This document shows, piece after piece, positions 23,988 through 25,742 of a DNA stretch of 64,000 nucleotides. Under the pieces are notes generated by a model, which had not been told where the DNA came from, did no database searches, and saw nothing but the letters and a program-made list of their open reading frames with translations. Origin of the DNA: an uncultured Pseudokineococcus sp. (lineage in GTDB: Bacteria; Actinomycetota; Actinomycetes; Actinomycetales; Quadrisphaeraceae); assembly GCF_947499845.1 (NCBI RefSeq), contig NZ_CANMPM010000001.1, positions 310,001-374,000 on the forward strand, given 5' to 3'. Positions within the stretch are counted from its first letter, which is position 1; the number at the start of each line of letters is the position of its first letter. A program made the position numbers and the translations under genes.

Positions 23988-24845
23988 TCAGACGCTGCGC
24001 GTCAGCAGCGCCCGCTTGACCTCGTGGATCGCCTTGGTGACCTGGATGCCGCGCGGGCAGGCCTCCGAGCAGTTGAAGGTGGTGCGGCAGCGCCACACGC
24101 CCTCGCGGTCGTTGAGCACCTCGAGGCGGACGTCGGCGCCCTCGTCGCGGCTGTCGAAGATGAAGCGGTGCGCGTTGACGATGGCGGCGGGGCCGAAGTA
24201 CTGGCCGTCCGTCCAGAACACCGGGCACGAGGACGTGCAGGCGGCGCAGAGGATGCACTTCGTCGTGTCGTCGAAGCGCGCGCGCTCCTCCTGGCTCTGC
24301 TTCCGCTCGCGCGTCGGCTCGTGGCCGGAGGTGATGAGGAAGGGCATGACCTCGCGGTAGGACTGGAAGAACGGCTCCATGTCCACGACGAGGTCCTTCT
24401 CGACGGGAAGGCCCTTGATGGGCTCGACCGTGATGGGCTTGTCGGGGTTGACGTCCTTGACGAGGACCTTGCACGCGAGCCGATTGACGCCGTTGATCCG
24501 CATGGCGTCGGAGCCGCAGACGCCGTGCGCGCAGGAGCGGCGGAAGGTCAGCGAGCCGTCCTGCTCCCACTTGATCTTGTGGAGGGCGTCGAGCACGCGG
24601 TCGGTGCCGTTGACGGTGACGGTGAACTCCTGCCACCGGGCCTCGGCGGGCTTCCCGTCCTCGGCGTCCTCGGCGCTGTACCGGCGGATGCGCAGCGTGA
24701 CGTCGAAGCGGGGGATCGCGCCGAGCTGGCCGCCGTCGGCGGACGCGCTCTCGCCCGCCCTCCCGTGCGGGCGGCCGTCGCCGTCGACCTGCTCGTCGTT
24801 GCGGTCCGCGGCGGCCTCGACGGCCTCGCTGTCGGTGCTGCTCAT
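23988..24845 (-). CDS. sdhB: succinate dehydrogenase iron-sulfur subunit
   Basis: Electron-transfer subunit of complex II. 285 residues, with a 45-residue acidic start not present in typical SdhB. [2Fe-2S] ligands: C105, C110, D113 and C125, with Asp at the third place as in E. coli. [4Fe-4S] and [3Fe-4S] ligands: C197-x2-C200-x2-C203, C207, C253 or C259, and C263-P. The ATG start follows an AGAGGAG ribosome site. Directly upstream is sdhD, not sdhA; the gene for the flavoprotein subunit, which normally lies between them, is absent from this window. Confidence 0.95.
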   Translation of the reverse strand: MSSTDSEAVEAAADRNDEQVDGDGRPHGRAGESASADGGQLGAIPRFDVTLRIRRYSAEDAEDGKPAEARWQEFTVTVNGTDRVLDALHKIKWEQDGSLTFRRSCAHGVCGSDAMRINGVNRLACKVLVKDVNPDKPITVEPIKGLPVEKDLVVDMEPFFQSYREVMPFLITSGHEPTRERKQSQEERARFDDTTKCILCAACTSSCPVFWTDGQYFGPAAIVNAHRFIFDSRDEGADVRLEVLNDREGVWRCRTTFNCSEACPRGIQVTKAIHEVKRALLTRSV

Positions 24846-24879
24846 GGGGCGGCGGGTCTCCTCTGGCGGGTGCGGTGGG

Positions 24880-25341
24880 TCAGCTCGTGCAGAAGGACGG
24901 GACGCCCTCGAGGAAGGCGCCGTCGGGGCCGACCGGGCACGGCTCGAAGGTGAAGATGACGAGCGTGCCGAGGACGACGGTGAAGACGAGCGCCACGAGC
25001 ACGAGCGTCTTCAGCACGATGCGCGTCATGTCGCGCTGCGCGTAGTCGTTGATGATCGTCCGGACGCCGTTGCTGCCGTGGATCATCGCGAGCCACAGCA
25101 TGGCGAGGTCCCAGACCTGCCAGAAGGGGCTCGCCCACTTGCCGGCGACGAAGCCGAAGTCGAGGCCGCTGATGCCGTCGCCGACCATGAGGTTGACGAA
25201 GAGGTGCCCGATGACGAGCACGACGAGCACGGCGCCCGACAGCCGCATGAAGAGCCAGCTGTACATCTCGTAGTTCGACCGCCGGGACGCCGAGCGCCGG
25301 TACGGCGTCGAGCGCGGGGCCTCGAGCGAGGGAGCGGCCAC
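24880..25341 (-). CDS. sdhD: succinate dehydrogenase membrane anchor subunit
   Basis: 153 residues with three membrane helices (about residues 30-50, 72-92 and 108-130). The family pattern SWLFMRLSGAVLVVLVIGHLF contains the haem-side His, and LAMIHGSNGVRTIINDY lies before the third helix. The GTG start is two bases after the sdhC stop, so the two anchors are tightly coupled. After its stop, 34 bases lead straight to sdhB. The carboxy terminus carries a Cys-Pro and a Cys-Thr-Ser end, possibly periplasmic. Confidence 0.92.
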   Translation of the reverse strand: MAAPSLEAPRSTPYRRSASRRSNYEMYSWLFMRLSGAVLVVLVIGHLFVNLMVGDGISGLDFGFVAGKWASPFWQVWDLAMLWLAMIHGSNGVRTIINDYAQRDMTRIVLKTLVLVALVFTVVLGTLVIFTFEPCPVGPDGAFLEGVPSFCTS

Positions 25342-25343
25342 GG

Positions 25344-25742
25344 TCAGCCTCCGAAGACGTTGGAGAGGTGGCGGACCAGGAACGGCACCATGAGCAGCAC
25401 CCACAGGGCGCCGACGGCCCAGAGCATCTGCCGGTGGAAGCGCGGACCCTGGGACCAGAAGTCGACGAGCATCACGCGGATGCCGTTGAAGGCGTGGAAG
25501 AGGACGGCGCCCACGAGGCCCGCCTCCCCGAGGCCGACCACGGGGTTCTTGTAGGTCTCGATGACCGCGTTGTACGCCTCCGGGGCCACGCGCACGAGCG
25601 AGGTGTCGAGCACGTGCACGAGCAGGAAGACGAAGATGAGCAGGCCGGTGATCCGGTGGGCGACCCAGGACCACATGCCCTCGCGGCCCCGGTACAGCGT
25701 GCCCTGCGGCACCACCGACCGGGTGCTTGTCTCGGTCGCCAC
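25344..25742 (-). CDS. sdhC: succinate dehydrogenase cytochrome b556 subunit
   Basis: 132 residues, three helices. The quinone/haem motif W-S-W-V-A-H-R-I-T-G near residue 25, the His in LLVHVLDTSLVR and the His of LFHAFNGIRVML are all present. The GTG start at 25742 has a GAGGAG ribosome site. A minus-strand TACGAT about 95 bases upstream is a likely -10. First gene of an operon reading sdhC-sdhD-sdhB. Confidence 0.93.
   Translation of the reverse strand: MATETSTRSVVPQGTLYRGREGMWSWVAHRITGLLIFVFLLVHVLDTSLVRVAPEAYNAVIETYKNPVVGLGEAGLVGAVLFHAFNGIRVMLVDFWSQGPRFHRQMLWAVGALWVLLMVPFLVRHLSNVFGG

What the first reader, a model, noticed from the sequence alone, without database searches (positions are those of the whole stretch)
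24843..24882. Succinate dehydrogenase operon lacks sdhA
sdhC, sdhD and sdhB are contiguous and intact, but the roughly 1.75-kb flavoprotein gene normally between sdhD and sdhB is gone. Only 34 bases separate the sdhD stop from the sdhB start, and they contain a normal ribosome site and no remnant. Complex II cannot work without SdhA. Either sdhA is elsewhere in the genome, another flavoprotein has taken over, or the junction is a precise deletion or assembly fault.
Basis: partly seen in the sequence, partly recalled or inferred. Interest (0 to 1): 0.7.

Follow-up and report, generated by a model that had tools for sequence, protein, structure and literature searches.

The report
Relocated sdhA completes respiratory complex II
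The gene missing from this energy-metabolism operon is not lost: in all four genomes of this genus held here it sits intact elsewhere, so the enzyme is very probably complete and only its gene order is unusual.

Summary
In detail: sdhC, sdhD and sdhB are contiguous and intact, with 34 bases between sdhD and sdhB. The suspicion of a broken complex II is not supported. A full-length SdhA (TIGR01816, 908 bits, cut-off 727) lies on another contig, G000:C9:30266-32017. It is the only SdhA found, and the window holds the only SdhB found. All four subunits have chains of one solved complex, 6LUM, as best relatives. It is not an assembly fault: 4 of 4 genomes of the genus are split, while 9 of 9 other family genomes keep sdhA beside sdhB. 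Elsewhere 55 of 58 order genomes (the 3 exceptions are this genus), 63 of 65 class places and 80 of 80 named loci are unsplit. The remote sdhA lies near ilvC, divergent from a LysR gene and followed by a strong hairpin, in all four. Best reading: one ancestral relocation, SdhA made in trans. Replacement by transfer from a near family is not excluded. Split sdhA/sdhB is known in a cyanobacterium (PMC5160925, passages).

The parts
25344..25742 (-). sdhC, cytochrome b556 subunit, 132 aa
   Evidence: TIGR02970 92.3 bits, cut-off 52.3; only solved relative found 6lum_C
24880..25341 (-). sdhD, membrane anchor subunit, 153 aa
   Evidence: TIGR02968 42.6 bits, cut-off 41.8; best solved relative 6lum_D
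24846..24879 (-). 34-base sdhD-sdhB spacer where relatives hold sdhA; carries a ribosome-site-like AGAGGAG
   Evidence: sequence; near in length to the sdhD-sdhA leaders of G007 and G103, which also carry a GAGGAGGA stretch
23988..24845 (-). sdhB, iron-sulfur subunit, 285 aa, with an N-terminal extension of about 45 residues
   Evidence: TIGR00384 250.8 bits, cut-off 88; PRK05950 344.6, cut-off 228; 6lum_B 372.8 bits

Best explanation
The genome encodes a complete, ordinary succinate dehydrogenase of the E. coli/mitochondrial type, but from two places. The window holds sdhC-sdhD-sdhB. sdhA was moved, once, before the genus radiated, to a site between ilvC and leuB, where it looks like a single-gene unit: its own leader and ribosome site, divergent from a LysR-type regulator, closed by a strong hairpin before the convergent neighbour. 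SdhA is then made separately, flavinylated, and assembles in trans with SdhB and the SdhCD anchor. Shown: both loci, intact reading frames, one copy of each found, the same arrangement in 4 of 4 genus genomes. Inferred: that the moved gene is the native one, that it has its own promoter, and that the parts assemble.
For: Remote SdhA is full length (584 of 584 model positions, 908 bits) and matches 6lum_A (978 bits) and E. coli 1nek_A over nearly the whole length, with the SHT motif kept. One SdhA and one SdhB in the genome; the second flavoprotein match looks like NadB. Split in 4 of 4 genus genomes, unsplit in 9 of 9 other family genomes. LysR divergent from sdhA and ilvC downstream in 4 of 4; leuB beyond the LysR gene in 3 of 3 genomes where it can be seen, the contig of the fourth (G101) beginning inside the LysR gene. 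In 5 of 5 relatives whose fetched stretch holds both ilvC and leuB, no sdhA lies between them (L174-L178). Downstream hairpin in 4 of 4, z -7.2 in the window's genome. The best SdhA tree puts the genus beside the other 9 family rows (support 91/81, short of the tool's star).
Against: Native origin of the moved gene is not proven. AU tests do not reject trees that hold the genus's SdhA with Kineococcus and G014 (p 0.155), with Jiangellaceae and G001 (p 0.496), with G004 (p 0.29) or with Actinotalea and Sanguibacter (p 0.355); a fifth test did not finish. Identity does not single out the family: members are 83-85% identical, but G023, G004 and G017 of other families reach 83-84%. No sigma-70 consensus promoter and no terminator with a T run was found at the new site. 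The LysR gene matches no NCBIfam regulator over its cut-off among the 25 families shown. No expression or assembly data exist here.
Confidence: 0.72

Rival explanations
1. Xenologous replacement: the operon's own sdhA was lost, and the copy between ilvC and leuB came from another, fairly near actinobacterial family, perhaps together with the LysR gene. Function is the same; only the origin differs.
For: The LysR neighbour has no close relative in the other 9 family genomes (6 of 9 have a match at E <= 1e-20, all 40% identity or less). AU tests leave several outside placements of SdhA open. G023, G004 and G017 of other families are 83-84% identical to it, as much as its own family. The genus's stem is long in the SdhA tree (0.23).
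Against: The best tree keeps the genus with its own family (91/81). SdhB, which stayed in place, also has a long stem (0.27), so rate, not transfer, can explain it.
Confidence: 0.23
2. Assembly or local deletion artefact at 24843-24882 that hides a normal sdhCDAB operon.
For: The window comes from a draft genome of 76 contigs.
Against: Four assemblies of the genus agree; the remote sdhA has the LysR gene and ilvC as neighbours in all four; only one sdhA per genus genome was found.
Confidence: 0.01
3. SdhCDB works with a different flavoprotein, or as a non-succinate enzyme, and the remote SdhA serves something else.
For: Only that the two loci are unlinked.
Against: No other SdhB was found for the remote SdhA, and no other SdhA-like flavoprotein than the NadB-like one. 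All four subunits match the four chains of one solved complex, 6LUM.
Confidence: 0.02

Closest known systems
Succinate dehydrogenase of PDB 6LUM (recalled as Mycobacterium smegmatis Sdh2)
   Same: All four subunits match its four chains best.
   Different: Gene order here: sdhC-sdhD-sdhB plus a remote sdhA. The order of the 6LUM genes was not looked at in any call.
   Same: Same enzyme type, same sdhC-sdhD start of the operon; SdhA 84% and SdhB 84% identical to the window genome's.
   Different: sdhA lies between sdhD and sdhB, six bases before sdhB.
Split sdhA and sdhB of the cyanobacterium Synechococcus sp. PCC 7002
   Same: sdhA (A2569) and sdhB (A1094) have distant locus tags, and the paper concludes that loss of either abolishes the activity (PMC5160925, passages).
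   Different: A distant phylum. Here sdhC, sdhD and sdhB stay together and only sdhA is apart; where cyanobacterial anchor genes lie was not looked at.

Membership tests
Succinate dehydrogenase flavoprotein SdhA, TIGR01816 equivalog | Score over curated cut-off across the whole model | tested here: met
   908 bits, cut-off 727.35, positions 1-584 of 584
Succinate dehydrogenase flavoprotein SdhA, TIGR01816 equivalog | FAD-linking histidine and active-site regions | tested here: met
   The SHT motif at query residue 46 aligns with that of E. coli 1nek_A, and the HPTG and HGxNRLGxNSLLD regions align; the roles of these residues are recalled
Succinate dehydrogenase iron-sulfur subunit SdhB | Cluster-ligand cysteines | tested here: met
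   The CAHGVCGSD, CILCAACTSSCP and CSEACP regions align with 6lum_B; the ligand roles are recalled
Complex II (four-subunit succinate:quinone oxidoreductase) | All of SdhA, B, C and D encoded in the genome | tested here: met
Complex II (four-subunit succinate:quinone oxidoreductase) | Assembled, active complex | not testable with these tools
   Needs biochemistry
Canonical sdhCDAB operon | sdhA between sdhD and sdhB | tested here: not met
   34-base spacer only; sdhA on contig C9

The most novel reading that the evidence does not exclude
By leaving the operon, the catalytic subunit of complex II came under a dedicated LysR regulator that reads a metabolite near the branched-chain amino acid genes. 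SdhA supply, not the whole operon, would then set complex II activity in this genus.
Probability: 0.15. Interest if true: 0.45.

Novelty: new variant of a known kind. Interest (0 to 1): 0.22.

Why it matters
It is a clean, genus-wide case of one subunit gene of a membrane complex leaving an otherwise strictly kept operon with no loss of any subunit. It offers a natural test of whether co-transcription of complex II subunits matters. It also warns that a gene missing from an operon should be looked for genome-wide before a pathway is called broken.

Tried and rejected
Loss of complex II: rejected, sdhA found.

Assembly fault: rejected, four genomes agree.

NadB or another flavoprotein as substitute: rejected. 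The second match in the genome is best matched by L-aspartate oxidase models. Only a 428-residue part of it was scanned, and its scores stay under the cut-offs (for example 397.5 against 452.75 for nadB).

Transfer from another family: not favoured by the best SdhA tree, but not rejected by 4 of 4 finished tests; a fifth did not finish.

Mobile-element cause: no transposase was recognised by eye in the gene calls around the new sdhA. I saw the first residues of the calls, nine translations and three neighbours plus IlvC and LeuB scans (one search scanned four proteins). This is weak; most neighbours were not searched against a library.

Shared operator between the sdhC and sdhA leaders: none evident by eye. 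Consensus promoter and terminator scan: nothing found; in such G+C-rich DNA this says little.

Literature: 'Pseudokineococcus' with 'succinate dehydrogenase' gave 0 papers. Among the titles listed (20 of 58; 12 of 13; 10 of 45; 10 of 12; 9 of 9) I saw none about a relocated sdhA in Actinomycetes. Passages only were seen of PMC5160925, PMC3879981 and PMC10408702; all other papers only as listings.

For that reason the odds were moved from 0.75 to 0.72 (native gene moved) and from 0.20 to 0.23 (replacement).

Full report
Observation. In the window sdhC (25344-25742), sdhD (24880-25341) and sdhB (23988-24845) lie in a row on the minus strand. The spacer between sdhD's stop and sdhB's ATG, 24846-24879, is 34 bases and carries a ribosome-site-like AGAGGAG. 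The three genes pass curated cut-offs of their families, sdhD only just (42.6 bits against 41.8).

Where sdhA is. A search of the window's own genome with the SdhA equivalog model TIGR01816 found a full-length gene at G000:C9:30266-32017, 908 bits against a cut-off of 727, with no stops. The only other match at E <= 0.001 (C31) is best matched by L-aspartate oxidase models. The SdhB model found one gene, the window's. The genome is rated 97.55% complete, so a further copy in a gap is possible but unlikely. The remote SdhA and the window's SdhCDB are thus the parts at hand for a complex II. The four proteins find as best solved relatives the four chains A, B, C and D of one complex, 6LUM (that it is from Mycobacterium smegmatis is recalled). 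The FAD-linking histidine region and the cluster-ligand regions are kept in the alignments (the roles of these residues are recalled).

Is it an artefact? No. The family search covered 13 genomes. In 4 of 4 of the window's genus sdhA and sdhB are on different contigs; in 9 of 9 others they are neighbours on one contig and strand. In G026 and G043 both loci are deep inside long contigs; G101 is a fragmented assembly, but its sdhD-sdhB junction and its whole sdhA with neighbours on both sides lie inside contigs. The sdhD-sdhB spacer is 34 bases in G000 and G101, about 50 in G043 and about 76 in G026.

How rare is it? In the order sample (99 genomes) 58 have this SdhA type over the cut-off. In 55 of these sdhA is directly followed by sdhB (gap 62-377 bases between model matches), and the 3 others are all of this genus. 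In a class sample (148 genomes, overlapping the first in part) 65 SdhA places in 62 genomes passed E <= 1e-150, and 63 of the 65 have an sdhB next to them. The two others are the window's genome and G144, whose match begins 501 bases from the start of its contig and which has no sdhB match at the threshold used. Of 80 named loci from the genome collection, 80 of 80 have sdhB beside sdhA.

Anatomy of the new site. In all four genomes sdhA is divergent from a LysR-type gene (in G101 the contig begins inside that gene). The leader keeps a CGATAGGC box, a CCTAC(C/T)CTGG stretch that could be a -10 region, and a purine-rich ribosome site. Just after the stop there is a long G+C-rich hairpin, -59 to -66 kcal/mol for the first 75 bases in the four genomes; in the window's genome z is -7.2 against shuffles. 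It lacks the T run that the terminator scan asks for. Downstream lie an ASCH-like gene and ilvC, with an alcohol dehydrogenase-like gene in between only in G000 and G101. leuB and ilvE lie beyond the LysR gene in the three genomes where this can be seen (IlvC and LeuB were confirmed, the ASCH, QOR, ilvB and ilvE labels are mine and come from no call). The ilvC-leuB stretch was fetched from 8 of the 9 other family genomes (G073 was not). In 5 of the 8 (L174-L178) leuB lies 5 to 7.5 kb past ilvC with no sdhA or LysR match between. In L179 there are 15 kb past ilvC without leuB or sdhA, and L180 and L181 end about 6 kb and 0.6 kb past ilvC. The LysR gene has no close relative in the other 9 family genomes (6 of 9 match at E <= 1e-20, 40% identity or less).

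Origin. The best SdhA tree places the four genus sequences beside the nine other family sequences (support 91/81, not starred), which fits a native gene that moved. This is not firm. Constrained trees with other actinobacterial groups were not rejected (p 0.155, 0.496, 0.29, 0.355; a fifth test did not finish). G023, G004 and G017 of other families are as close by identity (83-84%) as the family (83-85%). The SdhB tree does not resolve the family either. So a moved native gene is favoured, a replacement from a near family possible.

How it probably works. sdhCDB and sdhA are made as two units and assemble in trans. The sdhB gene, which in the five relatives read begins at or within six bases of sdhA's stop, here has its own leader, resembling the sdhD-sdhA leader of G007 and G103 (that it is that leader is inference). 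Subunits coded apart are known to work: in Synechococcus sp. PCC 7002 sdhA and sdhB have distant locus tags and both are needed (PMC5160925, passages).

Taxonomy. A GTDB naming paper of 2023 lists Quadrisphaera and Pseudokineococcus as the genera of Quadrisphaeraceae (PMC10408702, passage); the tool's family now has four genera. The window's genus is therefore perhaps Pseudokineococcus, but no tool named it.

Verdict. The alarm is not: complex II is encoded in full. What remains is an unusual, genus-wide gene order, a variant of a known kind, of modest interest.

Noticed in passing
window 24708-24845 (-): SdhB of the window genome carries an N-terminal extension of about 45 residues before the conserved domain; it is of similar length in G043 and shorter in G026 and in the relatives G007, G059 and G103.
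   Followed up: partly
L069 7982-9160: A zinc alcohol dehydrogenase-like gene (no NCBIfam model over its cut-off) lies between sdhA and the ASCH-like gene in G000 and G101 but not in G043 and G026, so this site varies further within the genus.
   Followed up: partly
L001 3408-4295 (+): A LysR-type regulator found in all 4 genus genomes, divergent from sdhA, with only distant relatives (40% identity or less) in the rest of the family.
   Followed up: partly
L108: A contig binned as Bifidobacterium breve carries an sdhA-sdhB pair with SdhA 76% identical to this one; this is probably a binning error, since bifidobacteria are not expected to have this enzyme (recalled).
   Followed up: no
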